Below are positions 19,744-39,800 of a stretch of 46,446 nt of DNA, piece by piece; within the stretch, counting starts at the first letter, position 1, and each line of letters opens with the position of its first letter. Under the pieces are notes generated by a model. The model ran no database searches. It saw only the letters and a list, made by a program, of their open reading frames with translations, and was not told the origin of the DNA. A program made the translations under genes and the position numbers. The stretch is from positions 1 through 46,446 of the IMG/VR virus record IMGVR_UViG_3300043436_001506. The stretch is one strand, 5' to 3'. This DNA comes from a virus.

Positions 19744-22700
19744 TTAATCGGGTGATTGGTTTTCAATTTCTTTAGACTCTGCATTAATTAATCTATTCCT
19801 TTGACTTTGATATGCTTTCTCTATTTGTTTCTGCATTTCGTAAGACTGATCTTTAGGAGCCTTAGGCAATGTAACATCATAGAAGTTCTTAAGCATCTTC
19901 TCAATAGACTTTTTATCTTGCTGTCCTTCGTATGCACTAACCTTTCTTTCTACGTTATACATGTTGATAGTGGGGTTTGTCTGCTCCATGTACATTTTGT
20001 CTAGTTGTAAAGTAGCCCATTGAGCCGCTTGCTCTTTAAGTTTTTCTACGTCTGGCTTAGACATTTCATCCCAACGACCCTCTGTGAATTTAACCAAGTC
20101 ATCTATATCACGAGTCAACATATCTTGTTGAAGTTGGTCTATCTTCTTCTCTACTTGAACGTAATCTCCTAACGGATCTTGCATTCCTATCATAGGATTA
20201 ATCTTAAGTAAGTCTTGTACTCTCTTCTTAGGTTCGTAGATTGGTTTTAGTCCCATCTCAACACCGTATACTTTCATACCCATAGCAACTATCCTAGGGA
20301 GTCCTAAAGTAGGAGCAGGAGTATTAACTATACTTATTCCTCTGTAGTCTTTTCTTTGTTCGTAATAAGGCTCAAGCGGATCAGTAAGGTTTCTCCAATC
20401 AAACAAAGCATCATAAATTTGGTCAAAACTTCTCATCTGAGGACCCATCAAAGAATACAAACCATGTTTAACTCCACTTGTGATTGTACCTTGTTCTTCT
20501 CCTGGCTTTGCTAAAGGTTTACGGAAGAATGTTTTGTAAGTCCAGTTAACAGGAGCAAGTACAGGGTGTAGTGAAATGTATTCATCGTAGGTTCCTAAAG
20601 CTATAATAGATAGGATAGATAAAAACTGATCGTCATCTCCACCTCCACCTAGGCTTAGAACAAGAGAAATCAACCCATAGCTTAAAGCATGCAAGCCAAT
20701 AACATTTAAGTTATCTCTCCAAATACGTTGATACTTTTCTTGTTCAAATTCTGTACTTCCTAAATTCATTCTCTCTCCACTCTTCAGATATCTCATCTTC
20801 CTCACTAAAGAACGACCTCCTGTTCGATAGAATCCTTCTTCAATATTCCCAGTATACAAAGACATTCTTTTGCTACCGAAACTACTTTGTAACTGAGGAT
20901 AGAACCAACGTCTCATCGACATCAATATACTAGCAAACATACTTTGTTCGTAGTAAGAACGAGAGCGACTAAAGTAGTTACCTTGAGTACTAGTGTACAT
21001 TTCGTGAATCTGATCTCTAAGATATTGTTCAACAGCTTTTAGCTTTTGCATCTTAGCTTGATTCATCTTATCAGTAGAAGCAATCATCACATCCAAAGAT
21101 TTCTTTGGACTATTGATAAGTGCTTTAAGTTCTTTCTCCTGTTTAGTAGTTAAGTTCTTTATGTCAGAGATTCCATTTTGACCTAGGTACGTTTGGATAA
21201 TCTGATTACGCTCTTCTACCAAAGCCCTAACTTTATTTAACTCTAAACCAAATACACCATCCTTGGGAACTAAAGCACCATTGACTACTTCATAAGCATC
21301 GTCTAATTTTATTCTAGTTTCTTGTCCATTGATTATAATGGGAACACTAGTACGACCCATAAGTGCCTCATAGATAGGTATAGTAGAAGCCATCTCTGTG
21401 TAGCCAAATACTTGAGCACTAAAGTTATCAGCATTTAAGTACTTATACATACTTTGTTGGTGAACCAATCCTGTCATTTTAGTAGGATTAGCCGCAGGTA
21501 CAGCTCTAAAGTGAATCAGCTTTAAAGCATATTCACTATACTGTTTAGAACCTATCTCTAAAGATAGTAATGACCGCCTTTTAGTAAGACCTTTCCACCA
21601 ACCAGCAAGTAGTTCTCTTCGGGTTAACCCATACCTATTCTTACTTAAAACTATTTTAGCAAAGTTGTTAAAGACGTTCTTGAATAGACGAAGGAAGTTA
21701 AATAACAATACACGTGCTTGGCTAAACCTAAACAACCTTCGAGTTGCTCTAACTACTGCAGTTACTGTTGGATTGTCTCCAAACAACTGTAGTTTGTTAG
21801 AAGTTTCTGCCCCATAGAAGAAACGAGATATCTCGTTATCCATCATTGCTAAATCATTTGCAGGTACGTTAGTTTCTCCAGCAGCCTCTCTAGCAGCAAA
21901 TACAGCAGGCATTGCTTTACGTAGACCATTAAATTCAGCAGCATATGCTCCAAACTCAGCCAATGAGTTAGTCAGTACGTGAGAAACCTGATTTACGTTC
22001 AAGGGTTCTTTGTACCTAGTTTTAATAAGTTGTACTTTTCTACCTGAAGATTTAAGTCGTGCGTTCTTGTCAAGGTCAATTAAACTAGAAATTTCGTCTT
22101 CGTACATATCCTCCCCAGCGAATCCTGCCTTAAACATTAACTTAAATCCATCAAAGATACTTGCGAATCTATGCTTAGGTCTTGTGAAAATGTCTGTAAC
22201 TTTCTCTCCTGCGTACTTAGTTCTATTAGGAACTGTGTAACCTTCTAGTCTTTGAGACACGGGCAACATACGTTGAATGTCTTCATACAAAGTAACCATC
22301 TCATCTGCTAATGCTTTATCCTGTGGATTCATATTAGCATAAGCCTCGTTGGTATATCTGTTGTCTGAAGTTACTCTTGGGCGAGCTGATCCTAGGAATT
22401 TGTAATCCTGGTTCTTGTAACGTTCTCTAACTCTAGGGACAGACCAATCAAAGTTTGGATTTTCCTGTTTGATGTAGTTCTTGTTTACTGGTATAGTACG
22501 GTTCCAAATATAAATAGGACGCTCGTAGACTTTAACTATTTTAGCTCCTGTTTTTTTATCAGTGTACTTTTTAGTAATCTTAATATGGTTTGCTTTGTAC
22601 CAATCAGTTTCTTTTATCTTTCTCTGCACCATTGCTTCAAAAAGACGATTACGGAAAGCAGCAACTAAGTCAATACGGTGTTGAGCATTTCCAAAATCTG

Positions 22701-25700
22701 AAGGGTGATTAAGAACAGGTAAGTCGTCATCTAAAGTCAAGGCATCTTCCTCTAGGGAAAACAATCCTTCACTCTCAATGTACTCGTCAGCCATTTTTTC
22801 AGACTGCTCATCAAGTGCTTTAACTGTTTCAGGGTCTGAAACAATATCTGTTCTTACTGAGTTTGCAACTTGATTATAGACTTTGTAATAATATTCACTT
22901 TGCCTTTTGATTTGCATATCGCTAAGCTGTTTGAATAAATTTTTCAAAGTCTCTTTATCTTCGTCTGATAACTCTCTATTCTCTTCTGCGTCTTCTTTAA
23001 GTTTTTCTATCCTCTCTTCTATTGATTTTATAGTAGAGACTAATCCTTTTTGGACTTGTGAACCTACTATGACTCCATCCTGGTCTCTGTATCCTTTGAT
23101 TGAATTAAACAACTCATCGTAAGCCTCTGACAACAATGGGTCTTCACCGTACTTTAAGAATACTTCTTTGATTTTTTCTGCAATAGAACGTTGCATTTCA
23201 AAGAACTCAGGGTCAATTTCAGTACGTGTGTTTGCTTCTAGCCACTGCTTCAAGTCTTCTTTAGCTTTATCTAAAGACTGTCTAACTATAGTTAACTCAA
23301 CTTCTTTTTTAGATATATCTTCACCCAAGGCTTCGGCATCAGCTATCTGTGTAACCAACAAGGTTTCTTTCTTTTCAAGATTAGTTACTGCTTCTTTCCT
23401 TGAGTTTTTTTCTATGTTGAAACGTTGAAGTACTTTTTCAGGAATAGTAAACTCTACTGCTTCTAAGTCTCTACGTTTGTTTTTGTAAGCTATAATAGAA
23501 TCAGCAATGTCTCTTTCTTTAGTGCCTTTTGGTTTTTCAGAACCATCTTCGTTAAAAATAGAACCGAGGCGTTCGTACTCCTTACGTAAGTCTGCTCTAT
23601 GTTTTCTTTCTTCTTCAGTAGATTCAGAATCTCCAAACACAGCTTGGTGCTCTTCAATGTCTTTAAGAATTCTTTCTCTTTCAGATCTAGCTTCTGGAGT
23701 AAGTAATTCTTCTGCCTCATAGTATTCATCAGTGTATGGACGAACTGCGTAGTTATCCAAGAACTTTTGAAGTTTATCTTCTGCATCTAAAATCTCTGCT
23801 TCTACTCCATTCTTTTTGGCATTCTGTAAGTTTCTTTCTAACTCTTGTAAATCATTTCTAAACTCTGCTTCTTTAAATTTGGTATTGTAAGCAAGTTGTT
23901 TCATAACTTTTCTTACTCCATTCGCATCGTAGTACACCATCTCTACTTCACGAGTAAGGTTCTTATAGAAATTACCTAGGTTAGATGTCCACTTAATACC
24001 TTGTGCTTTATTACGCTCTTCAATCTTTTTCTCTAACTCAATAGTTCTATTGGTTATTTCCAAACTAGCATTCTCTGCTTCAATAAGATGTACATCGATG
24101 TATTGTTTTACTACCTGTACTAAAGGACTTCCAGTCATGTTGGCTACTCCAAGATATACAGTAAACATATTTGCTCCTGCATAGTCTTTGTTCATACCTG
24201 TCTGAAGTAAGGTAAGTATGTTTTGTTTAGTAGGAACCCAAGACAAAAATGTTTCTAACTCCTTAATGTCTTTAGCCAAGTCTTTTGCTTTGTTGATCTC
24301 ACCGTTAGCAACTGCTTGGTTGTACAACACTCTTTTAGCATTTAGTTCTTGATTAAGTTGGCTGTCTGGGGCTTTAATCTTATCTGCAACTAATTTAAAA
24401 GGTTCTGCTAATTGCGAGGCTACAGGAGATAGAATTGCATTCCTAGCACTATCATTGAGTTCTGCAGACTTCTGCCTAATAATTCTTAACTTGTTTATGA
24501 GTTGCTTGCTGACAATATCAAAGTTCTCTACTTGTCTTCTTCTTTCCTCAAGAAACTGTCCTTTCTTGGTTGGGTCTGCATCAAGATCCGTGCTAGTCTC
24601 ATAGATAGTTAACTGAGGCAATAAGAACTGCTTGTATGCTGCTACTTGGTCTTTCACAAAGTCAGCAATATTCATAGCATGGTTAAACACCCTTACAGCG
24701 TCTTCTGAACTATACTGTGATAAGTTCTCTTCGTGCAAAATAACATCATCAGAAATACGACCAAGTAAATCTTCTATAGATTGTAGATAGTCAATAGAAC
24801 CATTAATTATAGTACCAAGTGAACTGCTTGAGATATTACCAAACTTCTCCCTAATTCTTTCAATAGAAGCAAAACGAGGATCAATCTCAGATAAACTTTG
24901 ACTTAACTGTTTCCAACTAGAACTGTTTACAGTGGCATCTACGTATTGTTGGAACTTGGTAATCTCTATACTATGTGGAGTAGCTTGAGCACTATTGTAA
25001 GGTTGGTTAAACCTTAACTCATGTTCACCTGCTAACTCTGGCATATCTTCCAGATTTTCCAGATACTCAAAGTAGGCATTAATAGTTTTTCCTACTTCTT
25101 CAAATCTATTTGTACCTAATCCTAATACGCTATTTAAGAACTGTTTTATTCCTAGAATAAATCTGTCTATAAAACCTTTGTCTTTTGCTGTGCTTTGTTG
25201 TTCCTGTAGGTCTTCTCTGAAGTATGGATTTGATAAGTACTCTGATACAAACTCTTCAATGTTCTTAAATCCGTAGTGGTGTCTTAGTTTTGGAAACTTA
25301 CTTTTATACTCACTTAAGTACCTTTCCATCTCTTGCCTAAAAGCAATTTCCTGGGCATTGGTTGGATTAGTTAAAGCTGAAATAGTATAAGCGTGTACCA
25401 CTTCGTGAATCAACTCACGAGCAAAGTTTTGGTTGTTGAAGTTAGAACTAACTGTCTTTCCAATATAAACTGTGTTTGACTTTGGGTCGTAGAATGATCT
25501 TTGGTACTCATCCTCTACAGTAGCATCGTCAAATACAGTAACCTTTAAACTAGGATTAATCTTAAGTAGACCACGAAGTCTTCCCAGAATCTCTTGTTGG
25601 AACGCAGGAAGTTCTTTGTTAGCAATCAAGTTATCCAACAACTCTATCAAGGTAGCATTTGAAAAATCCGCTACATTGTTCAGAATCATATCTGGGAATT

Positions 25701-26193
25701 TAATCTTTGCTAGATACTCTTTACTTACGGGTCTAACAACCTTACCTTCTGTCTTTGGTTTTACAGATAAGTAGTATTTATTATCAATACTAAGTAACTC
25801 ACTGTCTACTAAGTTGTACTTAGGGTTTAAGTTAATCTCATTGATAATGTTGTCAAAGGCATTTGGATTTGTATATCCCTTACCCAAGTAACCTAAACTT
25901 GCAACTTCTTCTATCTGCTCAGCTGCTCTAATCTCCGTAGGACTCATGTTGAGTTTCAGGTGAGCATTAATCTGCTGTATGGTGGGTTCTCCTAAAAAGT
26001 TTAACTTAGGATTATATCCCTGTTGTTTTTTAGTCCAATCAAAACCTAACTCAGTTTTAAAAGAATTAGTAGTGATAGCTTCGTAAATACTTTTTCCTTG
26101 GCTTGCAGGAAAAAAAGAAGTTAATTGATAGTATGCGGGACTCGTTACAGTCTTACCTGTAAGTGGAGATTTTATTTTAGCAAAGCAAGACAT
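19744..26193 (-). CDS. Giant virion cargo protein with HExxH zincin-like domain (2149 aa)
   Basis: The last of three giant genes. Near the N-terminus, HEVVH (H263, E264, H267) followed by NIEEFVSEYLSNP (about 311-323, with candidate third ligands E314 or E318) forms a zincin-like metallopeptidase, as in phage polyvalent proteins. Residues about 370-1250 are largely helical coiled coil. About 1828-1865 holds two hydrophobic segments (VIGLHALSYGLISLVLSL and FLSILSIIALG) that could enter a membrane. The only cysteine I can find is C3 (MSCFAKIKSP); it faces the tail of the upstream gene. The protein probably travels in the virion and enters the cell. The protease target is unknown; processing of the co-packaged giants is one possibility. 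Confidence 0.75.
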   Translation of the reverse strand: MSCFAKIKSPLTGKTVTSPAYYQLTSFFPASQGKSIYEAITTNSFKTELGFDWTKKQQGYNPKLNFLGEPTIQQINAHLKLNMSPTEIRAAEQIEEVASLGYLGKGYTNPNAFDNIINEINLNPKYNLVDSELLSIDNKYYLSVKPKTEGKVVRPVSKEYLAKIKFPDMILNNVADFSNATLIELLDNLIANKELPAFQQEILGRLRGLLKINPSLKVTVFDDATVEDEYQRSFYDPKSNTVYIGKTVSSNFNNQNFARELIHEVVHAYTISALTNPTNAQEIAFRQEMERYLSEYKSKFPKLRHHYGFKNIEEFVSEYLSNPYFREDLQEQQSTAKDKGFIDRFILGIKQFLNSVLGLGTNRFEEVGKTINAYFEYLENLEDMPELAGEHELRFNQPYNSAQATPHSIEITKFQQYVDATVNSSSWKQLSQSLSEIDPRFASIERIREKFGNISSSSLGTIINGSIDYLQSIEDLLGRISDDVILHEENLSQYSSEDAVRVFNHAMNIADFVKDQVAAYKQFLLPQLTIYETSTDLDADPTKKGQFLEERRRQVENFDIVSKQLINKLRIIRQKSAELNDSARNAILSPVASQLAEPFKLVADKIKAPDSQLNQELNAKRVLYNQAVANGEINKAKDLAKDIKELETFLSWVPTKQNILTLLQTGMNKDYAGANMFTVYLGVANMTGSPLVQVVKQYIDVHLIEAENASLEITNRTIELEKKIEERNKAQGIKWTSNLGNFYKNLTREVEMVYYDANGVRKVMKQLAYNTKFKEAEFRNDLQELERNLQNAKKNGVEAEILDAEDKLQKFLDNYAVRPYTDEYYEAEELLTPEARSERERILKDIEEHQAVFGDSESTEEERKHRADLRKEYERLGSIFNEDGSEKPKGTKERDIADSIIAYKNKRRDLEAVEFTIPEKVLQRFNIEKNSRKEAVTNLEKKETLLVTQIADAEALGEDISKKEVELTIVRQSLDKAKEDLKQWLEANTRTEIDPEFFEMQRSIAEKIKEVFLKYGEDPLLSEAYDELFNSIKGYRDQDGVIVGSQVQKGLVSTIKSIEERIEKLKEDAEENRELSDEDKETLKNLFKQLSDMQIKRQSEYYYKVYNQVANSVRTDIVSDPETVKALDEQSEKMADEYIESEGLFSLEEDALTLDDDLPVLNHPSDFGNAQHRIDLVAAFRNRLFEAMVQRKIKETDWYKANHIKITKKYTDKKTGAKIVKVYERPIYIWNRTIPVNKNYIKQENPNFDWSVPRVRERYKNQDYKFLGSARPRVTSDNRYTNEAYANMNPQDKALADEMVTLYEDIQRMLPVSQRLEGYTVPNRTKYAGEKVTDIFTRPKHRFASIFDGFKLMFKAGFAGEDMYEDEISSLIDLDKNARLKSSGRKVQLIKTRYKEPLNVNQVSHVLTNSLAEFGAYAAEFNGLRKAMPAVFAAREAAGETNVPANDLAMMDNEISRFFYGAETSNKLQLFGDNPTVTAVVRATRRLFRFSQARVLLFNFLRLFKNVFNNFAKIVLSKNRYGLTRRELLAGWWKGLTKRRSLLSLEIGSKQYSEYALKLIHFRAVPAANPTKMTGLVHQQSMYKYLNADNFSAQVFGYTEMASTIPIYEALMGRTSVPIIINGQETRIKLDDAYEVVNGALVPKDGVFGLELNKVRALVEERNQIIQTYLGQNGISDIKNLTTKQEKELKALINSPKKSLDVMIASTDKMNQAKMQKLKAVEQYLRDQIHEMYTSTQGNYFSRSRSYYEQSMFASILMSMRRWFYPQLQSSFGSKRMSLYTGNIEEGFYRTGGRSLVRKMRYLKSGERMNLGSTEFEQEKYQRIWRDNLNVIGLHALSYGLISLVLSLGGGGDDDQFLSILSIIALGTYDEYISLHPVLAPVNWTYKTFFRKPLAKPGEEQGTITSGVKHGLYSLMGPQMRSFDQIYDALFDWRNLTDPLEPYYEQRKDYRGISIVNTPAPTLGLPRIVAMGMKVYGVEMGLKPIYEPKKRVQDLLKINPMIGMQDPLGDYVQVEKKIDQLQQDMLTRDIDDLVKFTEGRWDEMSKPDVEKLKEQAAQWATLQLDKMYMEQTNPTINMYNVERKVSAYEGQQDKKSIEKMLKNFYDVTLPKAPKDQSYEMQKQIEKAYQSQRNRLINAESKEIENQSPD

Positions 26194-26208
26194 GAGTTTC
26201 TAGTTATA

Positions 26209-26238
26209 CAAATTTAATGTAATTACAAACTAATACAA
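26209..26238 (-). promoter_or_regulatory. Internal Bacteroidota-type promoter before the 2149-aa gene
   Basis: On the minus strand TTG (26238-26236), exactly 19 bases, then TAAATTTG (26216-26209). It fills the only sizeable gap (47 bases) in the giant-gene series and would start a transcript about 11 bases before the ATG. Confidence 0.7.
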
Positions 26239-26240
26239 GG

Positions 26241-26837
26241 TTAGAACTCACACATATCTTCTTGGAAGTCTATGCTGTCTAAGTCACCTTTATCATTTTC
26301 TTGTGTAGGATCTAACTTTAAATTCAACGGGGGTGCTTGTTTAGTAGGAGTATAAGCCGTTTTGACATCTGATGTAATAGCGTCTTGAAGAAATAATCCT
26401 TCTTCAAAATCTCTAAGTTCCTGTTCTGCCAATGCTACATCTCCCTTAAAAAATCCAGAAGGTCTATAAATCTCTTGTTCAATTTGTGGGAATACTTCTT
26501 CAATTGTTATCTCCTCGTTCTTTACTTGATAAGAACTAAATAAACTAGGAGTAACTACTACTTGTATGGAGGCTCCATCGGTATAAGTTGTACCTCCTAA
26601 GACATTACCAAACTTACTGAGTCCAAGTTCTTGATTGGCTTTTTTCACCGCCCTGTCTACTATACTTCGAACTTTATAGTTTGCATTTTTATACGAAACC
26701 TTACTATCTATAGGAAGAAAGATTTCTCCAATAGCATTAACTCTAAAGTTAGAATCTACTGTCTTAGCAACATTAAGTGCTTTGCCAGTAATTGTAGTTT
26801 TAATACTACGTGGTGTTATGTTACATGCTTTTGCCAT
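26241..26837 (-). CDS. Small protein between giant genes with a cysteine at each end (198 aa)
   Basis: I chose the ATG at 26837 (MAKACNITPRSIKTT); the open frame could extend to a TTG at 26858, but that would overlap the RNA polymerase gene. The first 115 residues look like a folded alpha/beta domain; the last 60 (TKQAPPLNLKLDPTQENDKG to DFQEDMCEF) are Pro-, Asp- and Glu-rich and probably disordered. It has just two cysteines, C5 and C196 (third from the end), so both ends match the pattern of the neighbouring giants. It may act as a linker or adaptor between the polymerase and the zincin protein. No known family is recognised. Confidence 0.75.
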   Translation of the reverse strand: MAKACNITPRSIKTTITGKALNVAKTVDSNFRVNAIGEIFLPIDSKVSYKNANYKVRSIVDRAVKKANQELGLSKFGNVLGGTTYTDGASIQVVVTPSLFSSYQVKNEEITIEEVFPQIEQEIYRPSGFFKGDVALAEQELRDFEEGLFLQDAITSDVKTAYTPTKQAPPLNLKLDPTQENDKGDLDSIDFQEDMCEF

Positions 26838-26841
26838 ATTT

Positions 26842-29800
26842 TTATTCGCAAGGGTCAACTTCAGGAAGATTGTCTATGTCTGATTGTGTAGGAGTATTAG
26901 CAGCTTTGTTAGCCTGTGTGCCGCCTTTGGAATAAGCAAGTACTTGGTTTTCTATACTTGTAAGTAACTTAACAACGCCTGGACCAACTCCTACAAAGGT
27001 TTTTAAAGTCTCGGAGTAATTATTTTCTAAAAACGAAGCTAATAACTTTAACGGACCTGATCCTTCTAACGTCATTTTAGTAGCAAACCTAACTAAGGTT
27101 AAGTAGTTATTTAACTCGTCGAAATCCATAGAAGAGATTTGCTTAACAGCATCGTTGGTGTACTGAACATAAGCTTCGTGAGGAATAATATTAGCTACAC
27201 TGTCTTTACTAAACTGACCTCCTTGTTGCATATAACTACCCAAAGCCAAGTCTGTAAAGAATTGTTTAATCTCAGGATTACTATGATTAAGTCCGTCTAA
27301 GAATGCTTTTCTATACTCTTCGTTAAATTCTCTTGTTTCAGTATTCTTAAGTTTAAATTGTATCTCTGTACTCAAGTCTTCTGTATCAATGAAAAGATTG
27401 TTAATCAAGAAGTTATTTCTCAAGTCAGGATTCTGCAACAAGTTTATAAATCTCTGCTCCATGTTGTTAGCAGTACTTCTTCTAAAGATTCCACTAGTAC
27501 CTCTGTAATAATCTAACAGATTACCATTTTCATTAGAAGCTGTAATCATTATGTACGGCAACAAAAGATTGTTCTTGAATGTTTTTACCTCTCTAATTCT
27601 ATCATCTTCTTTAAACGTACCTCTTCTATCCATGAAGTTAGTTATCTCCTGTAAGACTGTTGGAGATTCTGACAATGGAAACACCTTTTCCATAAGTTCA
27701 GATACTACACTAGATACATTAAACTGTGCCAAGGCAGAGTTATTGAACATGTAATTGATTCCCTCTATGTTAAAATCCTTAGTTAAACTTACTTCACCTC
27801 TAGAAATATCAACCGACTGGAATGAAGTTCTATAGTTTGTGGTGTTAAAATCTGCAAGTGAAGTTAACTTTCTCAAACTTTCTTGCTGCTTAAGAACTAC
27901 ATAAAACTGCAATAGGTACGCTAGGTCTCTTACTTTAGCCTGATCTCCTTCAAGAGATTTGCTTGGATCAAACTCTTTGATGTGTACATTTACTGAATTC
28001 AGTTTCAGCATATCAACATACATACGAGCAATTTGAGAATCATTTAATCTTTTGTTTTCATTAAGGGCTGTAGCAATAGTCCTTTCAATGTTCTCAAAGT
28101 TTTCTTTAATCTCTGGATTGTTTATCTGCTTTACTAGGGCTTTAGCAAGAGCGAGCGTAGCTGCTTTCTTATTTGTTTTAGTTTCAGTCAACTTAGAATA
28201 AATCTCAGGTCTGTTTGAAACCTTAAGAATGTTCTTGATTGTTGGAGAGTTAATGAAGTCCAACACATTCTTGACAGGAGTACCTGCAAGAATCATTGCG
28301 TGTGCCAATGGACTTGTTTCTTGGTCTAACCCTAATAAGATAATCCAGTCTTCCTTGGCAATGTCTACGTGGCCGTTGATGAACTCACTAAGTACTTTAG
28401 ATATACGATTCTCATTCAATGCATCTTTCTTACCCCCTAATGAAATTTGACCCTTGTCAGTTCTGTTTGCAGGAAAGTAATAAGTGTTAAGTAGAGAATT
28501 CGTGTAGCGCATACCCGCAATTTGGAACTCCTTCTGCATTGTATTGATTTTGGCATCAATACCTAATGCATCTTTAGAAAGGATGTTTTCCTTGTAGATA
28601 CGCCAAGAAGTTAATGGGTTAAAGATATCTGTAGATGTAATTAACTTACTTGGATACTTATACTGAGTTAATACGCTGTTTGTGTTTGGTGTAATAAGTC
28701 CATCATAAAACTCAGGCATCTGCATAACAGACTTAAGTGTGCTAGTTAGATTATTTGTTAAAGAACTTTTATAATCTCTAATCTGATCCATCTGTGCCTT
28801 AATACTTTGGAATCCCTCTCTAAGTTTAGATATAGTTGTAAGAATTCTTACATCATTATCAGCATCAAACTTTTGTAAGTCAGCGTAGAGTCTTTGCAAA
28901 TCTTCATCATAAGCAGCAGCTCGACTCATTACATCTTTGTCTTCTGCAGTAATAATACCATTGTCTAAGAAATCTTGTACCAAAGTCTCTGACGCTTCTT
29001 TAATCTCTTCCTTTAAAGCACTAATGTCTGACTTAATTACCTCTCGCTCTAAGAATATACTGTTAGTAGCCAACTCTTGTTCAGCAAACTTAGATAATGC
29101 TTTTAGTTCTTCTCTTAAAACCTTCAAGTCTTTTTGGTTAGCTATTTTTTCAGAGTAGTCTTGAACGTTAAATGGTTTGTTTATTGTATTTCCTTGGTAA
29201 TCATAACTAGTTTCAAAGAATGTTAATTTGTCAATATCATAGTCACCACCTGTTTTAGTTACAATCTGTGCAGGAAGAATCATAATAGCTCCTGCAGATT
29301 CTGGAAGAAACTCTTTTACAGTTGCATACTCCATAGACTGTGCTCCTTGAACAGGAATACGCACACCCACCATAGTAAGCTTATCCATATGCTTCTTTCT
29401 CCAAGCAACATCTGCTGCTGCTTTAGACTTAAGAATCATATTTAACTGTCTTAGAGTTCCTACTTTACCTTCTTTGTAAGGTAGTGCTAATAAGCCAGCA
29501 TGTTTCTTCGTGTTGAATCCTATCTTAACTTCCATAGGAAGTGTCTCCCCTGTTGCAGGATCAGGTCTATAGAATTGTAAATCGTTAATACCATACTCAG
29601 ATAGTTGTTCTTTGGTTGGTTTTGTGAAACGTATTGTTTCAAAACCAGTACCTGAAACTTGAATGTAACTCTCTCCTGATACTTTTTGAGAAATCAGTTT
29701 ATTGTTTATTACGTTGAGTATGATTGTTTCAATTTGACTTCTGTCGGCTATAGCATCTAAAGAATACTTAAGGTTGTTGTTCTCGTCTATCTGAAGGAAC

Positions 29801-32800
29801 TTACGCAAATCCTGTGGAACTTCTTTGTCTTCAAACTGTTTAGCCAAGAAACGAGCTAACTGTAATTGATCTATGTTAGTAATTACTCCATTAGTTCTAG
29901 TTATACCTAACTTTCTTTCTAACTTAATCTGTTCAATAGTAACAAGGTCATCTATGTTTTTCTTGAACTGCTCGTATAGTCTACTGATTTTTTCTTTTGC
30001 ACTATCGCTATACTCTTCAGATATTACACCATCTTCAAAGAAATCCCCAAAGACCAGTTTCATCATCTGAGAAGACAATGTGCTTGAAGATTTAAACTTA
30101 GGTGCTTGGTATTGCTGCTCTCTTAAGTTGGTTAAGTGTAAGGTGGTAATATTGTCTTCTCCTAGATTTTGGTTGGGTACTAAAGTAGAAGTGCCATCCT
30201 GAGCAATTTCTTCATTGTAGAAGTTTGCAGACTTACCATAGTTACTCATCTTAGAGCCAGACTTGAATGTATAGTAGTTTATCTTATTCCTATACATTAT
30301 ATCCAACTGTTTCTCCAACTGCTTTCCTTCTATGCTAGTAGGAATCAAAGGAACTAGTGAGAACTTGTGCAATGCAACTAACTTTGGATCCTCTACGATA
30401 GGTCCATAGTGTCCTAACTTAAGAGGAGGGAATAATCCCAAACCAACTTTTTGAATTATTTCGTTCTTCTCTTCTATAAGTTGTTCAGCATTTGCTGGGT
30501 TAGTTTTTAACTCTTGGTTAATTTGAGCAAACCTAACTTGTTTATTATATGCCTCTTCTTGAGCATCACTCCATCTATTACCGCCTAGAGACAGTAGATA
30601 GTTACGGTAGAAATCTAAAGTAATAACACCTTGTCCGTCTGCTTCTTTAGCACCGTCAGTGTATGCACTAAACTCTGACTTTTCTTCTTCACTTAATGTG
30701 TCCCAATTACCACTATCATACACTTGTTTATATATGTCATATTGGTCTGGGCTTAAGCTAAGTACATCATTGTAGATAGTAGTGCGAACTACAGGACTAA
30801 ACTTATTCTCTACTCCACTATACGCTCTACTTAATGCATCTTGGTTAGTATCCGTTTCAAAAAATTCTTCTACTACACTATCCCAGAACGCTACGTTACC
30901 TGGAGAACTTGCAAAAGGCATACGTTTAAATATCTCTCTAAAGTCTCCTTTGAATTGGAAGTTTGAAATGTCTCCAATAAAAAACTTTAAAAACTCTACG
31001 TTATGTATAAACCCATTCTTAAGATAAATCTGTGCCAAATAAGGAAGATTCTCAGGAGTAATGGCTGGAATGTTCTGTCTCAATTCTGCTGGTAACAACT
31101 GACTGTTGATAATATTCAACTTGCTTAATTGTCCTGTAGTTAACTTTAACCTCTGCGCTCTGGTTAACTCAACTCCTGTTGTAATATTTACAGGTATACT
31201 AAAGATATCTATCAACTCGTCTACTAGTCTTTCTCCTTGAATAGCAAAGTAATTCTGCACAACAGTAGACATCATGCTAGCTGCTTCAGTATAAGCTGAT
31301 ACTAACTCTTCTTTGGTTGTAGCATTTATAAACTTACTTACTATTTCTTGTGGCAAGATATCTGAGAAGATAAACAAGTTCTTACCCATCTTACCATAGT
31401 TGTTATCTGCATTTGGATTATCAATCAACAGAGCAAGTCTGTTAACTTCTGAACCTAGATAACCTAAGAATATGTTAGTAACTTCCTTCTCTGCTTCTGT
31501 TTGTTCTACTGGATTTGTCAACTGACTTCCACTAATAGGAACATAAATCTTGTCTGCTAGTACAGGACTAGAGACAGTAGAAGCAAATGCACTAGACTTA
31601 TCTCCAAAACGAATGTTTTCTACTATTGCTGCTTGGAAGAAAGAACCAAAGTCTTGGAATATTTTGTCTCCAGGATGTTGGTCAGTTGTTACTTTACCTG
31701 ACTTACTTCCTAGGTTTTTAATTTCAGTTCCACCAAAGTCTAAAATATTGATTTCCATAGGATTACCTAAGGAATCATTCTTACGAGTATAAGATGATAA
31801 TGGATTGGATTCAATAGCTTTTCTGTTTGCAGGTAAACCAAACATTTTGCTAAGCCAAACAGAACCTAAAATATCTGGGTTTCTTCTATAGTCAAACTTC
31901 TCAAGCCCTGGAGTATTAATCAAAGCTTCGTAGTCTGTTGCTTTGTTAATCTCATTAGTCATTTGGGTTAAGAAGAACCAAGGACCTCTTACAAACTTCT
32001 TCTTCTCTGCTGCGTTTAAGTAGGAACTAGGTCTAAACTCTGTGTCATACTGGCTAAAAAAAGTAATAAAAGGTTGTAATTCACTTTTCTTAATCCCAAG
32101 ATACTCCGCAACTTTTTTCTCTTTGCCTTTGTATGTAACCTTCTTTTCTTCTACGCCTTTGTTAATGGCTGCTATAATCTCAGGTTTTAGATTCTTACCT
32201 TCTGCTAACGTACTCTGAATAGTGTCTCGGATAAAAGCCAATGGGGTACTAGTAGTAATCTTTTGTCCTTCAGGTAGGTATGAATTAATTATAGATACGT
32301 TCTTTAACTTCTCGTAGATTGTCTTTAAGTTACTTAAGTTTTCTAAGATAAAGTTTTGAGTAGCCTTTCTATTTGTTGTCTTTAAGTACTCTTGACTGGT
32401 TAAACCTAAACCAAGTGATTGCATGAAATACACAAACTCCCATGTTCTACCTGGAGTTAAAAAGTTAGCCATAGGAATTTTCATTACCATAGCAGCTCCT
32501 AGATTCCTAAACAAAGCAGCATAGTCATCTACAATAGCATCAATGTTTAGTTCGTTCCCTTCTACTCCAGTCATCTTATACTTCTGATTGTAACTGAAAT
32601 ACTGAGCATCGTATAGTCCTACAGCATTCTTAATAGGTTGGAATCCTTTAGTTTGTTGTGTAGTAGCAATAGCACCGTTCTGCTTTTTAGTTATGTCAAG
32701 AACTACTGAAAATACTTCTGGATTACTAAATACTCTTTTGAACTCACTAGTAATTAAAAACTGTTTTATGTTACCGACAGATCCTTGTATAGTTGGATTT

Positions 32801-33813
32801 GGAATCTTAGCAAGTAAAAACTTAAACTGAGGATATCTTTCTGACAACACTTGAATAGCCTTATACATATCTGTATAAGAAGTTAATCCTGATAAGTTTT
32901 GTCCAAGTAGACTCCAGTTCTTTTGGAAATCTCCTGCTTTTGGTAAACCTAGTACTGTGCCTTTGTTTTGAACAGGAGTAACCTCTTGGTATTCTTCTCC
33001 TGTCTCAAAGTCAACTTCTCCTGGTACAGCAGATCTATACTCAGGCAAAGACATAACCATACCAACTAACATCGAAGAGGCTCTTTCTTTTTGAGATTTC
33101 TCTCTGTCATTCCAACTTTCAGAGTCTCCCATTTTGGCCTCTAAATTTTCTTCTCCTACTAAACCATACTTAGAATCATACCAAGTCTTAATAGCATCGT
33201 AGTTGTTGATAATTTGAGTTAAATGTACAATCTGTAATATATCTCCTTCAAAGGATTTCTTCTGTTGTACTCTTGCAAGAACAGTATCTCTTTGGTTTAC
33301 AAGTTCTGTGTATACAGCAGTCCAACTTTTTCCAATACCTAACAAATACTGTAGCGTATTATAAATCTCTTGACCTTGTTCGTCAGAGAAGTAGAACACT
33401 TTTCTTTGTCCGTCAGTCTCACCTAGTTCAAGTGTAATTGACATGTTGGTAGGCAAGTTAACAGCCGCTTTAATTTGCTCTCGCTGTTCTTGTGCTTTTC
33501 TCTGTCTCTTCTCAACATAGTCAACGACTTGTTCTAACGTGTAATCTCCTTCTTCATTTGGAGTATACTCATTAGTAAATATGGGAAGAAAACTTTGTGC
33601 AACTAACTTTAGCGCAGTCTGTCTATTCCCTTTAGTAACAGGATGTTCTAGCAATGCTTGATATAGTGGGTTGTCTATAACTTTATCCCCAACTTTCTTT
33701 TTATCTAAAGGTTGTTCGTTATTAGCATTCCACACAAACACCATCACAGGTGCAGACAAAAACTTTTTGTACTCTACTTCGTAAGAAGTTCCTTTTATAC
33801 TACAAGCGTTCAT
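26842..33813 (-). CDS. Giant virion RNA polymerase, crAss-like (2323 aa)
   Basis: The catalytic signature GGDYDIDKL has D1524, D1526 and D1528 (bases 29230-29244), the DxDxD metal site of double-psi beta-barrel RNA polymerases. Just before it lie VGVRIPVQGAQSMEY (R1485) and PESAGAIMILPAQ, spaced like the 'R-x-P...G-x-x-x-x-x-P' region of the beta' barrel. Upstream, EVKIGFNTKKHAGLLALPYKE may belong to the second barrel. This fits the single-chain polymerase family of crAss-like phages (phi14:2 gp66), which is carried in the virion and transcribes early genes. The remaining ~1500 N-terminal residues have no recognised domain. Only two cysteines are seen: C4 and C2322, one at each end. Confidence 0.82.
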   Translation of the reverse strand: MNACSIKGTSYEVEYKKFLSAPVMVFVWNANNEQPLDKKKVGDKVIDNPLYQALLEHPVTKGNRQTALKLVAQSFLPIFTNEYTPNEEGDYTLEQVVDYVEKRQRKAQEQREQIKAAVNLPTNMSITLELGETDGQRKVFYFSDEQGQEIYNTLQYLLGIGKSWTAVYTELVNQRDTVLARVQQKKSFEGDILQIVHLTQIINNYDAIKTWYDSKYGLVGEENLEAKMGDSESWNDREKSQKERASSMLVGMVMSLPEYRSAVPGEVDFETGEEYQEVTPVQNKGTVLGLPKAGDFQKNWSLLGQNLSGLTSYTDMYKAIQVLSERYPQFKFLLAKIPNPTIQGSVGNIKQFLITSEFKRVFSNPEVFSVVLDITKKQNGAIATTQQTKGFQPIKNAVGLYDAQYFSYNQKYKMTGVEGNELNIDAIVDDYAALFRNLGAAMVMKIPMANFLTPGRTWEFVYFMQSLGLGLTSQEYLKTTNRKATQNFILENLSNLKTIYEKLKNVSIINSYLPEGQKITTSTPLAFIRDTIQSTLAEGKNLKPEIIAAINKGVEEKKVTYKGKEKKVAEYLGIKKSELQPFITFFSQYDTEFRPSSYLNAAEKKKFVRGPWFFLTQMTNEINKATDYEALINTPGLEKFDYRRNPDILGSVWLSKMFGLPANRKAIESNPLSSYTRKNDSLGNPMEINILDFGGTEIKNLGSKSGKVTTDQHPGDKIFQDFGSFFQAAIVENIRFGDKSSAFASTVSSPVLADKIYVPISGSQLTNPVEQTEAEKEVTNIFLGYLGSEVNRLALLIDNPNADNNYGKMGKNLFIFSDILPQEIVSKFINATTKEELVSAYTEAASMMSTVVQNYFAIQGERLVDELIDIFSIPVNITTGVELTRAQRLKLTTGQLSKLNIINSQLLPAELRQNIPAITPENLPYLAQIYLKNGFIHNVEFLKFFIGDISNFQFKGDFREIFKRMPFASSPGNVAFWDSVVEEFFETDTNQDALSRAYSGVENKFSPVVRTTIYNDVLSLSPDQYDIYKQVYDSGNWDTLSEEEKSEFSAYTDGAKEADGQGVITLDFYRNYLLSLGGNRWSDAQEEAYNKQVRFAQINQELKTNPANAEQLIEEKNEIIQKVGLGLFPPLKLGHYGPIVEDPKLVALHKFSLVPLIPTSIEGKQLEKQLDIMYRNKINYYTFKSGSKMSNYGKSANFYNEEIAQDGTSTLVPNQNLGEDNITTLHLTNLREQQYQAPKFKSSSTLSSQMMKLVFGDFFEDGVISEEYSDSAKEKISRLYEQFKKNIDDLVTIEQIKLERKLGITRTNGVITNIDQLQLARFLAKQFEDKEVPQDLRKFLQIDENNNLKYSLDAIADRSQIETIILNVINNKLISQKVSGESYIQVSGTGFETIRFTKPTKEQLSEYGINDLQFYRPDPATGETLPMEVKIGFNTKKHAGLLALPYKEGKVGTLRQLNMILKSKAAADVAWRKKHMDKLTMVGVRIPVQGAQSMEYATVKEFLPESAGAIMILPAQIVTKTGGDYDIDKLTFFETSYDYQGNTINKPFNVQDYSEKIANQKDLKVLREELKALSKFAEQELATNSIFLEREVIKSDISALKEEIKEASETLVQDFLDNGIITAEDKDVMSRAAAYDEDLQRLYADLQKFDADNDVRILTTISKLREGFQSIKAQMDQIRDYKSSLTNNLTSTLKSVMQMPEFYDGLITPNTNSVLTQYKYPSKLITSTDIFNPLTSWRIYKENILSKDALGIDAKINTMQKEFQIAGMRYTNSLLNTYYFPANRTDKGQISLGGKKDALNENRISKVLSEFINGHVDIAKEDWIILLGLDQETSPLAHAMILAGTPVKNVLDFINSPTIKNILKVSNRPEIYSKLTETKTNKKAATLALAKALVKQINNPEIKENFENIERTIATALNENKRLNDSQIARMYVDMLKLNSVNVHIKEFDPSKSLEGDQAKVRDLAYLLQFYVVLKQQESLRKLTSLADFNTTNYRTSFQSVDISRGEVSLTKDFNIEGINYMFNNSALAQFNVSSVVSELMEKVFPLSESPTVLQEITNFMDRRGTFKEDDRIREVKTFKNNLLLPYIMITASNENGNLLDYYRGTSGIFRRSTANNMEQRFINLLQNPDLRNNFLINNLFIDTEDLSTEIQFKLKNTETREFNEEYRKAFLDGLNHSNPEIKQFFTDLALGSYMQQGGQFSKDSVANIIPHEAYVQYTNDAVKQISSMDFDELNNYLTLVRFATKMTLEGSGPLKLLASFLENNYSETLKTFVGVGPGVVKLLTSIENQVLAYSKGGTQANKAANTPTQSDIDNLPEVDPCE

Positions 33814-33819
33814 TTTAGG

Positions 33820-36800
33820 TTAACAAGGTTTTTCATTAATAGCATCAGAAGGCATTGTACCTTCTTGGGGTAGAATAACTGCGTAGTCATCCAAATTAAT
33901 ACCAGACGAAGATAATACATCTGCAGTAGTTTGTGCATTTTCGGTCACAACTTCTGGTATATTCTCTGTCACTGTTTGTGCGCTAATAGGAGCTGCAGGC
34001 TTAGGAGCACTTGGCTTTGCGGTACGTGTATTAATTTGCTTAATAATCTTTGCGTCGTAACTTAATTTAATTAAATCTTTAGATGCTGCACTTTTATGTT
34101 TTGCAATTACTTCGGTTTTTCTAGTACCTAAACTTAAATCATCAATTGTAATTGCTCCATCTTCTTCTGAGTATTGAGAAGCAAATGCAAGGATACTAAT
34201 TGAATCTACAGGTAAGCCAAAGTCTTCTCCTAGGATAGCATAAGTAGTTTGTTGCGTAGACCATTTGCTTACGTTAGAAGGATAACCTTGTTTAGAACTA
34301 TACAGAGTAGTTACGAATCTATCTTCGTCTTTGAACTTCTTATTTTTAAAGTCAATGATGTGTACTCTACCTTCAGGATCTACAGCAAGAATATCCATAG
34401 CACCTGCCACACCTTCTAATCCTGTTTCTTGTTTTTCCTTTTCAGTAAACTCACGGTGGATAATAAGACCTTCGGTAAACAACTTCCATCCTTGACCAGT
34501 TAACTCGTCACGCACAGCTTCTAGTTCTGCTACCAAGTCGTCAAACTGTGCTTGTGTAAATAAAAGTTCATATCCTTTTCCTTTACGCAATCTCTTACCC
34601 ATGCCTTGTGCTTCTTTGATGTACTCACCTAAAGTTTTTACTTTATTTCCACCTAGAATATCACGACCTAGAATGTCCAAGAAGTTACCTACTGCTGCTC
34701 CCATTTCCATGTTAACTTCAGAGTTTTCAGTCTCTACGTTATTGTCACCAAGTACACGTTTAACAAAAGCAGATTGTCTTTCATATTTCTTGCCTTTAAT
34801 AATATACCCCACCTTATCAGGATCTGGTATATTTTTAGAATCAGCAATCATCTTTTCGACAGCTTTTATTGTACTTTCTTGTGTTACTCTTAATGGGTTT
34901 GCTATGGTAGTCGTTACTTGTTTAGCACTAGCAACAACTTCTTCAGAAGGCATCTCTTGCAGATTTACAACATTACCTACACTAAACTCAAAAGCATAAT
35001 CACTACGAACTACACGCTCTGAGCCATCTTCGTTTTTTAAGGTAATTAGTGGCTTCACACTTTCTGATGTCTTGTCGACAGGAGCAGATAGTCTTACTCT
35101 CTTCCCTTCTACTATACCTCTCCTCAATTCATCAAAACTCTTTTCAACTTCACTAGGGTCTTCTTTTGATTTTGTAGTAGGCAAATACATCAATAGAGAA
35201 TGCTCTCCGTTAGTGTCTTTGTTTCCTTCTTTAGAATACTTTTGTACCTTACCGTTAGAATCCAAGATAGTAAACGTAAGTACATTTAAGTCAGTAAACA
35301 TAGTAGGACGGGCACCAAGTTGAGGATACAAAAGACCAGTTACTTTATCTTTACTTCTATTAACTTTCAACCATAAGTCAGAACCATCTGCTTTGCCTCC
35401 TTTGATTAAGTAAAGCATTGTATTGTCTTTAGCTCTCACAATTACATTCTTATGTTCTATTCCACTAGCAAGTTTTACTGTAACTGTTCTGTTCTTATTC
35501 AATTCTAAAAGTTCAGCCTCGGTAGCATTTAAGTTCGGTCCTCCTTCTGGAGTAATTTTACTTAACATTTGTTTGTCAAACATATAAGTAAGAGCCGACT
35601 GTTTTACAAATCCGCTAGGCATTAAACCCATGAACTGAGTTCTTAACTCACGAATTCTTTCTTTAGTTGTATTTGGATTCTGTACTTCATTGAAAATAGC
35701 TTCCAAGGTATTCAAAGTATCTACGCCTAATACATCTTCTATAAGAGTAAAGAAATCTACTATTGCAGTTTGAGGATTTTTCTTAGAAGATACTTCTTGA
35801 TTTAAAGACTGAACAATCTTTTCTTGTATGTCAAAGAAAGGAACATTAGGAAGTTGAGCCTCACCAGTAGGCCTGAACAAAGGAGTAGTTATTAAAACTT
35901 TACTCTGCTCTACCAAATTGGCTTGTTGTTGTTCAGTGCCTTTAGTGGTAGCTTTAGTCTTACGAGTCTTTTTCTTTGTGTTCTCTTTAGTTTGCTCTAC
36001 GTTGTCTACTATAGGCTCAGCAACAGGTTGCTCTAAAGCAGCTAGTTCGGCATTATACTTAGCATCATCTTTTTTAATACCTACATCCATTTTACCAAAC
36101 TCAGCAGACATAATACTTACAACACTATCAAATCTTGAACTAGTAGGAGTTCTTTTTACTTTTCTTACTGTAATTTTTGCATCATCATCCAGACCTTCAA
36201 ACACTTCTTGATAATCTTCATCTAAGGGAAACTCTTCTTTAAATTCTTTAACAGTCATTGTTTTCCCCCCTAGTGTTACAGTAGTGTCTCCAACTTTTGC
36301 TTCATATTCTGTTACACTTACTGTTGTTCCTTCTACATCTTGAATAGAATTAGTTTGAGTTACTGTTCTTGTTTGACCTTTTCTGTTTCCTTTTTCTACA
36401 ATTTCAGAAGATATTGTTTTTGTAGTTTTTTTCTCTGTAATGGTTCTAGTATCTGTAGGTTGACTAGGCTGCCCCAAAGCAGCTAGTTCTGCTTCAAATC
36501 CCTCTTTAAATTCTTTAGCAAAATACTTACCTACAGACCAAGCTACCCCTATATTATTACCCTCTAAATCTGAAAACAATTTTCCGTTTTGTTGGATTAA
36601 TCCTTTATTAGCTAATTCTGTTGCTATCCTTTCTGCTATCTTTTCTCCAATTGCATTAGATTGTCTTTTTCTATTAGGTTTACCGTTATACTTAGAAGTT
36701 AAAATATAGTCTAATGCGTTTTTTATGTCTTCTTTTTTATCTTCGATATTATCTAATTCATCTAGTTCTTTGTTTAGAAGTACATCTACTCTTTCTTTAG

Positions 36801-39800
36801 CATTATAGACTAGTCCTTTTAGAGCATCCAAGGCTCTAGTATCACCTGCTAATCCAGTTCTTTCAATATTTTCTTTTCTTTTCTTCTCCCATGCTTCTAT
36901 TTTTTCTGAATATTCTGCATCAATTTTAGCATATTCTTCTTGCCTTCTTCTTTCTATATCAGCTTTAGCATCTTTTACTTCTTCAACAGCAACTCCAGGA
37001 AACTCTATTCCTAGTTGTACTGCGGCATTAGCTACAGCTTGTGAAGTAGGAGCAGCGAGTTGTGTCATACGAGCCAACTGATAAAGACCAAACGTATGTG
37101 TGTAGTCTGATTCTTCTACAGGTTCATTGTTGGCTACCATGTCCATTTGCTTCAATGTTTTTTGGATTTGAGCATTGTCTTTACCCAATGCTTGCATTAA
37201 AGCAGCCATTTTAGCTTTGGCAGAATTAAGGTCAGTTGTCTTAACTATATCAGCTATAGCATTATTTACATACTCTGTTCTTTCTTTAGGTATGCTAGTA
37301 ATAACTTCAGACTCGCCAGTAACTTCATTAACAACAACTTCATTTTCTTCTGTAGGCAACTCTTCCAATACCTCTACGGCATCTTGGAATTCTTCTGTCA
37401 TGTCTTCAGGAATAAGTTCAGGAACAACAACAGGTGTTTCTCCTACTTCTTCCAAAGAAACTTCAGCACGTTCTATTTCATCCTGCTGATCGCTTTGTTT
37501 TTCTAACTCTTCAAACTTTGCAAGTTCTTTATTTATAGCGTCTTTGTTTGTTGCTAGGTACTCAGCAAATGTCAAAGTATCTATTAACTCACCTCCAGTA
37601 TTACTTGCTTTGCTGAATCCAACTTTTTTTACAGAGGCAAACTTCTTGATAATATTCTTGGCAAAATTTTCTTGTTGAGCCAAGGACATCTTACCTGTAT
37701 TTACTCCTGCGATTAGAATATCTGTCAACAAGGCATCGTACTTCTTAACCTTGTTTTCCATCTCACCAATCTCTTCGTCCATCTTTTCTGCAAGACTTTG
37801 AAACAACTCTACCTGCTCATCACTTAAGTCATTGATTGTTTGGTATTTAGTTCTTTCTTTTTTCTGATCTGCAGTAGTTGGTTCTGTTTCCTTAGGATTA
37901 GTTTCGTCAGGCAATCCTTCGGTTTCTTCAAGATGATCTAAGAATACTTCAGTTAAATCTTCTCTGTCCTTCTTAAGTTTATCTAACTCGTTTTGATTCT
38001 GGCCAGTAATGTGGAAGTACAAGTCAGAACCATTATCAGGATCAATCATAGCTTGTACAACCATGTCTTCTGCATCTTGCACCTCTTTGATTCCTGAAGT
38101 ATCAATAGGAGGTACCTCTCCTTCAGTAGCAATAGCACTTGCTAGTGGGTTATAAGTTCCTCTAGCAATAGCCTCTTGCTTTGCTTGTTCCCTTTGTTCT
38201 TGTACTCTAACTAATTGTGAATGGTATTCCCTTAACCCTTCAATATGTCTGCTAGGTTGTTTCTCCTTAATAGCACGTCCTAACTGAGTTTCAGCATTTA
38301 CTATAGATTCTGCTAGAACTTGGCTAGTGGTAGTATACCTTGCATCTTCTACTTTAGCTCTAATGGTATTCTGAACAATCTGATTCTTTTGGTCATCAGA
38401 CATATTCTCAAATACTGCTACTTGTCTTTTGTATTTATCTATACGCTGTGTAGCTTCTTCTGCTTCAGCAATCAATTCTTTTCTACGGTCTTCAGTTAAA
38501 GTAGGATCATCACTAGCAAGTTTTGTTTCTATGCCTCTAACCTTAAGTATCTGTTTAAAGTAGTCAAATTGTTTCTCCTGGTCATTAACTAGGTCAGAGG
38601 TAAATGTAGCGGCATCTGCACGATTCTTTAGATTCTGCACACCGTACTCATCTGAAACTGCTACTAGATCTTGTAGTCTAGCTAACATATTACTGGCTTG
38701 AGTTTCGTCTAACTCACCTGCTTTGAATGCGCTATTAATCTTGTTTTTGTAGTAGTCAGCATTAACCATCATATCATACATAGCAGAGTATTTTTTATTC
38801 TCTGTGTATGCTTTGATTTGTCTACCACCACCTGCGGAAGGTACAAAGAATCCTCCAGCAAACGCATTTACAATCCCTTCAAAATCTAATGACTGTGCAG
38901 GCTCTCTTCTGTAATTAGCGTAGTCTGTAAATGCATCTATACTTGCATTAGTAATTTCAGAAAAAATTTCTTCTAAACCCTCTTCAGTACCACGAGCAAT
39001 ATAGAATCTACCTGCAGAACTTAACTTGCCAAATACATCAGCTGAGTTTCTAGCTAAAAATCCTAAAGCATTTTCTGATAACTTTCCTCCAAGTAAACCT
39101 GAGTAAAGATTTCTATACTGATTAAAATCTCCAGTCCACTTCTTACCAAACTTACCAGCTAGGTTACTTAATCCTATGCCCTTTTCAGCAAAGTCGTCTA
39201 GGTACTTTAAGTTAGGGAATATGTTTTCTGCAACTAATTCAACTGCCGTGGACAGAGTTGCAATGTTACGTGCAATCTCTTGTGCATTTTTTACACCCTG
39301 TGCTTCTAGTCTTTCTACTGTCCTATTGTACTGTTCAGGATACATTACTGCTGTCATACCAATTGCAGAAGGCAATCGGTCAGCAAGTACATTCTTTAAA
39401 AGAAAGTTGTTACTGCCTCTAAATGTAGTACCCCAAGCAGTTGCAGTGCTTTTACTTGCTTGTAATGTCTTTGCAAAACGTGCTGCATTTACTTCTCCTA
39501 GTAGTGAAGTAGTAACACCGCTTCTAATTCCTGTCTGCAAAAAAGCACCTCCTAAAGATTGTACTGTTCTACCTGCACCAGCAAAAGCTAGTACTTGTGG
39601 GATTGTTTCTGCAGCTGTGTTTAAAGTTCCATTAAAACTAAGATTCCAACCTCTAGGATCATACCAACTACTACCTGCATCTTGCCAAAACATAGTAGTA
39701 CTAGTTATAGGTTTACCTGCTAATATACTTGCACGTTCATCTATAACTGTCGGTACTTCCAAACGTTGACGCATGTAGTTATAAAAAGCATTTCTACTTC

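What the first reader, a model, noticed from the sequence alone, without database searches (positions are those of the whole stretch)
26185..33825. Six cysteines in 7295 residues, all at facing ends of four consecutive virion proteins
Reading the four proteins in full, I find one cysteine in the 2625-aa protein (its last residue, codon 33823-33825), two in the 2323-aa RNA polymerase (C4 at 33802-33804 and C2322 at 26848-26850), two in the 198-aa protein (C5 at 26823-26825 and C196 at 26250-26252) and one in the 2149-aa protein (C3 at 26185-26187). Every cysteine is within five residues of an end, and only ends that face a neighbouring gene have one; the outer two ends of the series have none. 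The phage is not poor in cysteine in general: the 667-aa DNA polymerase has about 17. I infer selection for exactly one thiol per facing end, which would allow a head-to-tail chain 2625-2323-198-2149 through disulfides, shared metal or another thiol linkage. Such a chain could pull the cargo in order through the tail, or release it when it meets the reducing cytoplasm. I know of no description of this.
Basis: partly seen in the sequence, partly recalled or inferred. Interest (0 to 1): 0.93.

Follow-up and report, generated by a model that had tools for sequence, protein, structure and literature searches.

The report
Cysteine couplings between giant phage-injected proteins
Giant virus-carried enzymes of crAss-like phages carry one cysteine exactly at each end that meets the next protein in line, across essentially the whole phage order, and lose it when the two genes are fused, which suggests they travel into the bacterium as one chain held together by breakable sulfur links.

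Summary
It is not local. In 189 non-redundant loci with a crAss-like virion RNA polymerase (R), with upstream partner U and downstream partner D, R's last 12 residues hold a Cys in 143/144 split R|D junctions and D's first 12 in 140/144 (143 after start correction). For split U|R junctions, U's end has it in 68/70 and R's start in 74/79 (77 corrected). Outer ends lack it: D C-termini 0/121, fused U+R N-termini 0/50. Where genes are fused the pair is gone; one 5642-aa U+R+D fusion has no cysteine at all. Extra members inserted in the chain (113-1167 aa) have a Cys at each end; ordinary genes in the same slot have none. The pattern holds in phi14:2 and in crAss001, whose gp47 lies on the opposite strand, so codon-level and translation-coupling explanations fail. 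Best reading: single terminal thiols join separate polypeptides head to tail in place of a peptide bond, most likely as disulfides reduced in the host cytoplasm. No oxidation data were available. I found no prior description in the open library; Drobysheva 2021 could not be read.

The parts
33820..41697 (-). U: 2625-aa chain member (phi14:2 gp67 / crAss001 gp47 position); only Cys is its last residue (codon 33823-33825). Its C-terminal region contains a PD-(D/E)XK-like sequence.
26842..33813 (-). R: 2323-aa virion RNA polymerase (TGGDYDID catalytic motif); only Cys are C4 (33802-33804) and C2322 (26848-26850)
26241..26837 (-). 198-aa 'bead' between R and D; only Cys are C5 (26823-26825) and C196 (26250-26252)
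19744..26193 (-). D: 2149-aa RNAP-associated protein (phi14:2 gp65 / crAss001 gp49 family by position and profile); only Cys is C3 (26185-26187); HExxH motif at residues 263-267
33802..33825 (-). junction 1: ...KPC stop / M N A C
26823..26850 (-). junction 2: ...DPCE stop / M A K A C
26185..26252 (-). junction 3: ...DMCEF stop, 47-nt gap, M S C

Best explanation
The U, R, (198-aa) and D proteins are virion cargo that enters the host. One cysteine sits on a short, charged tail at every end that meets the next member of the series. Adjacent tails and heads dock, and their single thiols join, most likely as a disulfide, so that the separate gene products form one linear chain U-R-198-D. The chain is functionally equivalent to the single fused polypeptide that other lineages encode. 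It would be packaged and pulled through the narrow tail in order. In the reducing host cytoplasm the links would open and release each enzyme. Shown here: one Cys per facing end, conserved across the order; absence at outer ends and at fused junctions; independence from gene adjacency and strand. Inferred: physical joining, the disulfide chemistry, ordered threading, and release by reduction.
For: Exact pattern in the window and in an ~80% identical relative whose RNAP carries a ~350-aa Cys-free insertion just before the conserved ...IDNLPEVDPC end. 189-locus survey: R C-end 143/144, D N-end 140/144 (+3 alternative start), U C-end 68/70, R N-end 74/79 (+3), nearly always exactly one Cys per end; D outer C-end 0/121, R+D fusion C-end 0/21, U+R fusion N-end 0/50, gene before a U+R fusion 0/42. 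Cys at the end of the preceding gene and at the start of the R ORF go together: 73 both, 45 neither, 4 discordant, p 1e-28. A complete 5642-aa U+R+D fusion has zero Cys. In five U+R fusions whose junction could be mapped there is no Cys within 40 residues. Split state and Cys change together in about 8 of 8 and 6 of 6 phylogenetically independent pairs. Inserted chain members have both ends marked, ordinary inserted genes neither. The pattern holds in phi14:2 gp67/66/65 and in crAss001 gp47/50/49 with gp47 on the other strand. Three loci that looked fused only because TAG had been read as Gln have the TAG exactly between the Cys pair. crAss001 virions do contain disulfides in the tail, and their cargo must pass constrictions under 50 A (PMC10172136).
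Against: No data on the oxidation state of these cysteines. Hosts of gut members are anaerobes and assembly takes place in a reducing cytoplasm, so an oxidising step is needed and none was identified. Each end has a chemically equivalent thiol, so correct pairing requires docking specificity that is only suggested (conserved tail in the window clade). Fused lineages work without the link. In several gut lineages the chain proteins also carry up to about 25 internal Cys.
Confidence: 0.75

Rival explanations
1. The paired terminal cysteines hold a metal ion (for example zinc) shared between facing ends, giving a non-covalent but thiol-based coupling.
For: Same positional logic as a disulfide; the survey does not distinguish the two.
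Against: Only two thiols per junction and no His enrichment in the last 15 residues of R (0.9%); zinc sites usually need four ligands.
Confidence: 0.12
2. Redox-independent thiol chemistry: the facing ends are ligated or modified by an enzyme, or by a native-chemical-ligation-like reaction, into a peptide or thioester bond.
For: Natural fusions show that a peptide bond between the members is tolerated.
Against: The Cys is almost never the N-terminal residue (usually position 3 or 4), and one Cys is needed on both sides; no ligase was found.
Confidence: 0.04
3. The TGY codons are a nucleotide-level signal for translation coupling or RNA processing at gene borders.
For: Many junctions are short or overlapping.
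Against: TGT and TGC are both used, the position varies, the pattern survives intervening genes and gaps of 350-6169 nt and opposite strands in crAss001, and the neighbouring upstream gene/U borders lack it.
Confidence: 0.01
4. The end cysteines anchor each protein separately to another virion part (portal, C1 cargo, DNA), not to each other.
For: C1 (gp45) binds the portal in crAss001 (PMC10172136).
Against: Does not explain why only facing ends carry a Cys, why fused junctions need none, or why inserted beads carry one at each end.
Confidence: 0.05
5. General avoidance of cysteine in ejected proteins plus chance retention at disordered ends.
For: Chain proteins have 0.13% Cys against 0.72% in other ORFs.
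Against: Outer ends of the same proteins have none (0/121, 0/50), while facing ends nearly always do.
Confidence: 0.01

Closest known systems
Crassvirales virion RNA polymerase and cargo (phi14:2 gp65-67; crAss001 gp47/49/50)
   Same: Same gene block, RNAP motif, giant proteins in the virion; the same terminal cysteines are present in their sequences.
   Different: Earlier papers that could be read describe storage, partial unfolding and variable gene boundaries, not the cysteines or a link.
Coliphage N4 (Schitoviridae) vRNAP
   Same: Giant RNA polymerase threaded through a narrow tail (PMC12633501).
   Different: One ~3500-residue polypeptide; the paper has no mention of disulfide or cysteine.
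Thermus phage P23-45 tape-measure-fused vRNAP
   Same: RNAP covalently joined to another giant tail protein (PMC10770324).
   Different: Joined by a peptide bond in one ORF, like the fused crAss lineages here.
Structural disulfides of the crAss001 tail barrel, hubs and gp57
   Same: Disulfides between virion proteins of the same order (PMC10172136).
   Different: They stabilise static assemblies; they are not described as end-to-end and not in cargo.

Membership tests
Crassvirales transcription block | Giant protein with the RNAP DxDxD-type motif next to giant partner proteins | tested here: met
   TGGDYDID in the 2323-aa protein; phi14:2 gp66 and crAss002 RNAP found by tblastn at 21-25% identity
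Crassvirales transcription block | D homologous to phi14:2 gp65 | tested here: met
   tblastn 3e-10 and profile hit 2e-80
Crassvirales transcription block | Capsid and terminase genes of the order in the same genome | not tested
   The window is a 46-kb fragment and these genes were not searched for
Paired terminal-cysteine chain (defined here) | One Cys at each facing end, none at outer ends | tested here: met
Paired terminal-cysteine chain (defined here) | Cys pair absent when the neighbours are fused | tested here: met
   only five U+R fusions could be mapped residue by residue
Disulfide-linked ejected protein train | Actual disulfide between facing ends in virions | not testable with these tools
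   needs non-reducing mass spectrometry
Split-intein or trans-splicing system | Intein domains flanking the junction | tested here: not met
   The Cys lie 1-7 residues from the stop or start in almost all loci, leaving no room for an intein outside them

The most novel reading that the evidence does not exclude
An order-wide, redox-cleavable covalent train: separately translated giant enzymes are strung end to end through single terminal disulfides as an interchangeable substitute for gene fusion, threaded through the phage tail in a fixed order, and uncoupled by the reducing host cytoplasm; new 'cars' can be inserted by giving them a cysteine at each end.
Probability: 0.65. Interest if true: 0.96.

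Novelty: categorically new. Interest (0 to 1): 0.93.

Why it matters
How phages push multi-megadalton enzymes through a narrow tail in the right order is an open question, stated as such in the crAss001 structure paper. Here is a sequence-level rule, kept over RNAP cores of 20-30% identity, that predicts which cargo ends touch, in what order, and when a covalent link is required. The order contains the most abundant viruses of the human gut. If the links are disulfides, this is a new way to build a polyprotein after translation and to release its parts by a change of redox state. It also gives a sequence signature for recognising chain members.

Tried and rejected
Translation-coupling or codon signal: rejected. 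General Cys avoidance plus chance: rejected. Reading TAG as Gln produced false 'fusions' in L278, L146 and L306; corrected by requiring four or more TAGs. A profile of the gene before U was too divergent to classify U|R state, so motif position was used instead. PHROGs and Pfam gave nothing significant for the chain proteins. The AlphaFold model of the 198-aa protein was useless (pLDDT 33). The model of the D N-terminal region (pLDDT 63) matched mini-metallopeptidases only weakly (best E 0.11). The 969-aa fibre is horizontally mobile and a poor guide to relatives. Drobysheva 2021 could not be read.

Full report
OBSERVATION. The four proteins hold exactly six cysteines in 7295 residues: 2625 aa, C2625; 2323 aa, C4 and C2322; 198 aa, C5 and C196; 2149 aa, C3. 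Coordinates are as stated. The adjoining 569- and 973-aa virion proteins have none; the DNA polymerase has 17. Random placement of the six in these end windows has a probability of about 5e-14.

IDENTITY. The window is a 46-kb virus contig. The 2323-aa protein carries TGGDYDID and is a distant relative of the crAss-like virion RNA polymerases of phi14:2, crAss002 and others; phi14:2 gp66 is PDB 6vr4. The 2149-aa protein is related to phi14:2 gp65. I call the series U (2625), R (2323), the 198-aa bead, and D (2149).

CLOSE RELATIVES. L001 (about 80% identical) has the same four proteins and the same six terminal cysteines. Its U is 215 residues shorter, and its RNAP has a ~350-residue Cys-free insertion immediately before the conserved IDNLPEVDPC end. 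In a 61%-identical relative (G003, L105) there is no separate bead: the RNAP ORF ends in the bead's tail (KGNLDDLGFEEDTCEIV against KGDLDSIDFQEDMCEF). Both cysteines of the missing junction are gone and four remain: U C-1; R C4 and C-4; D C3. L334 has no bead; L362 has a 169-aa bead (true start MASC) with a Cys at each end.

ORDER-WIDE SURVEY. Scans with an alignment of RNAP cores plus named phages gave 268 loci, 189 after removal of cores over 95% identical. D was recognised with a profile. Split or fused U|R was decided from the distance between ORF start and catalytic motif (under 2100 split, 2850 or more fused). Neither criterion uses cysteine. Results (window of 12 residues): R|D split, n=144: R C-end 143, D N-end 140, and 143 when three late in-frame ATGs are accepted. 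U|R split, n=79: R N-end 74 (77), U C-end 68 of the 70 with an adjacent ORF; U of L112 and of L158 have their last Cys at -32 and -18. Nearly all ends hold exactly one. Distances are 1-7 from the C-end and 2-8 from the start, apart from single cases at 11 and 12. Controls: D outer C-end 0/121; R+D fusions, outer C-end 0/21; U+R fusions, outer N-end 0/50; the gene before them 0/42; U outer N-end 1/46, the exception (L184) being a further split of U that again has a Cys on both sides. Other ORFs of at least 300 aa: 14-16% at either end. The expected number of R C-ends by uniform placement is 1.9. Remaining exceptions: L160 (RNAP gene interrupted), L166 (ORF broken inside R), L194, L325.

FUSIONS. 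The minimum number of state changes on a FastTree RNAP tree is 11 for U|R and 6 for R|D. In independent pairs the Cys at the ORF end goes with the split state in about 8/8 and 6/6. This test is partly definitional, because a fused junction has no ORF end, so the absence of Cys inside fusions was examined separately. Five mapped U+R fusions have none within 40 residues. A complete 5642-aa U+R+D ORF (L277) has none at all, and a 3525-aa R+D ORF (L143) only its N-terminal C7. Two mapped 'fusions' that did show a Cys pair, and a third locus, turned out to be split by a TAG lying exactly between the two cysteines.

INDEPENDENCE FROM GENE LAYOUT. crAss001 gp47 (U position, + strand) has only C-3; gp50 (R, - strand) has C5 and C-9 plus one internal; gp49 (D) has only C5. 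The pattern therefore follows protein order, not gene adjacency. In 16 loci the gap between R and D exceeds 100 nt. The intervening genes are either beads with a Cys at both ends (window 198, L001 198, L362 169, L364 195, L336 1167, and L357 113 beyond a 6-kb insertion) or ordinary genes with none at the ends (L129, L259, L135, L240, L342, L258, L269); L130 has no listed ORF, L160 is intron-like, and L162 has an ORF with a Cys at its C-end only. Cys codons are both TGT and TGC.

MECHANISM. Shown: selection for one thiol at each facing end, only there, and only when the neighbours are separate polypeptides. Inferred: the thiols join neighbouring chains. A disulfide is the simplest two-thiol bond. 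crAss001 virions already contain disulfides in tail parts, and the cargo must pass constrictions under 50 A in partly unfolded form, with the order of extrusion unexplained (PMC10172136). A linked chain would explain the order, and the reducing cytoplasm could release the parts. The conserved tail that precedes D in the window clade, whichever protein carries it, suggests docking that selects the right partner. Shared metal is the main rival.

POSSIBLE SECOND ROUTE. In fused U+R ORFs an HExxH motif (typically GTxYHEAFHRVS) lies 1300-1800 residues before the catalytic motif, near the expected junction. It is seen in 65 of 74 fused loci against 2 of 79 split ones, and in about 7 of 9 independent pairs. 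This might be a protease that cuts fused chains, but loci with a longer R also have it while split, so this is only a lead.

PRIOR WORK. Searches of the open library found no mention of these cysteines. The phi14:2 RNAP paper was not held, so earlier notice there cannot be excluded.

Noticed in passing
L098, L238, L336 and most U+R fusions (1300-1800 aa before the RNAP motif): A conserved HExxH zincin-like motif (GTxYHEAFHRVS) near the expected U/R junction of fused ORFs, rare in split ones; possibly a built-in protease releasing fused partners.
   Followed up: partly
window 25393-25407 (residues 263-267 of the 2149-aa protein): HExxH motif conserved in D, including phi14:2 gp65; the weak AlphaFold model's best PDB matches are mini-metallopeptidases (selecase, jannalysin) at E 0.1.
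   Followed up: partly
window 16750-19659: 969-aa fibre-like virion protein 42-47% identical to T4-like cyanophage proteins and found on many unrelated contigs: horizontally mobile.
   Followed up: partly
L100:14089-14190: The annotated start of crAss002 gp33 seems 32 codons too early; an in-frame MSC start fits the pattern.
   Followed up: yes
L278, L146, L306: A single TAG lies in frame between neighbouring chain genes, exactly between the Cys pair, so readthrough would give a fusion.
   Followed up: no
L162:13213-13974: A 253-aa ORF between R and D (start like GIY-YIG endonucleases) ends RIKNCN, echoing the RNAP end RIKECN; perhaps it captured the RNAP tail.
   Followed up: no
window 15202-15780 and 8853-9290: DNA/RNA non-specific endonuclease with a signal-like N-terminus, and a dCMP/cytidine deaminase.
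   Followed up: no
L184:2-5729: U is split once more (..C-2 | C3..C-1 | C4) and the extra junction again has a Cys on both sides.
   Followed up: yes
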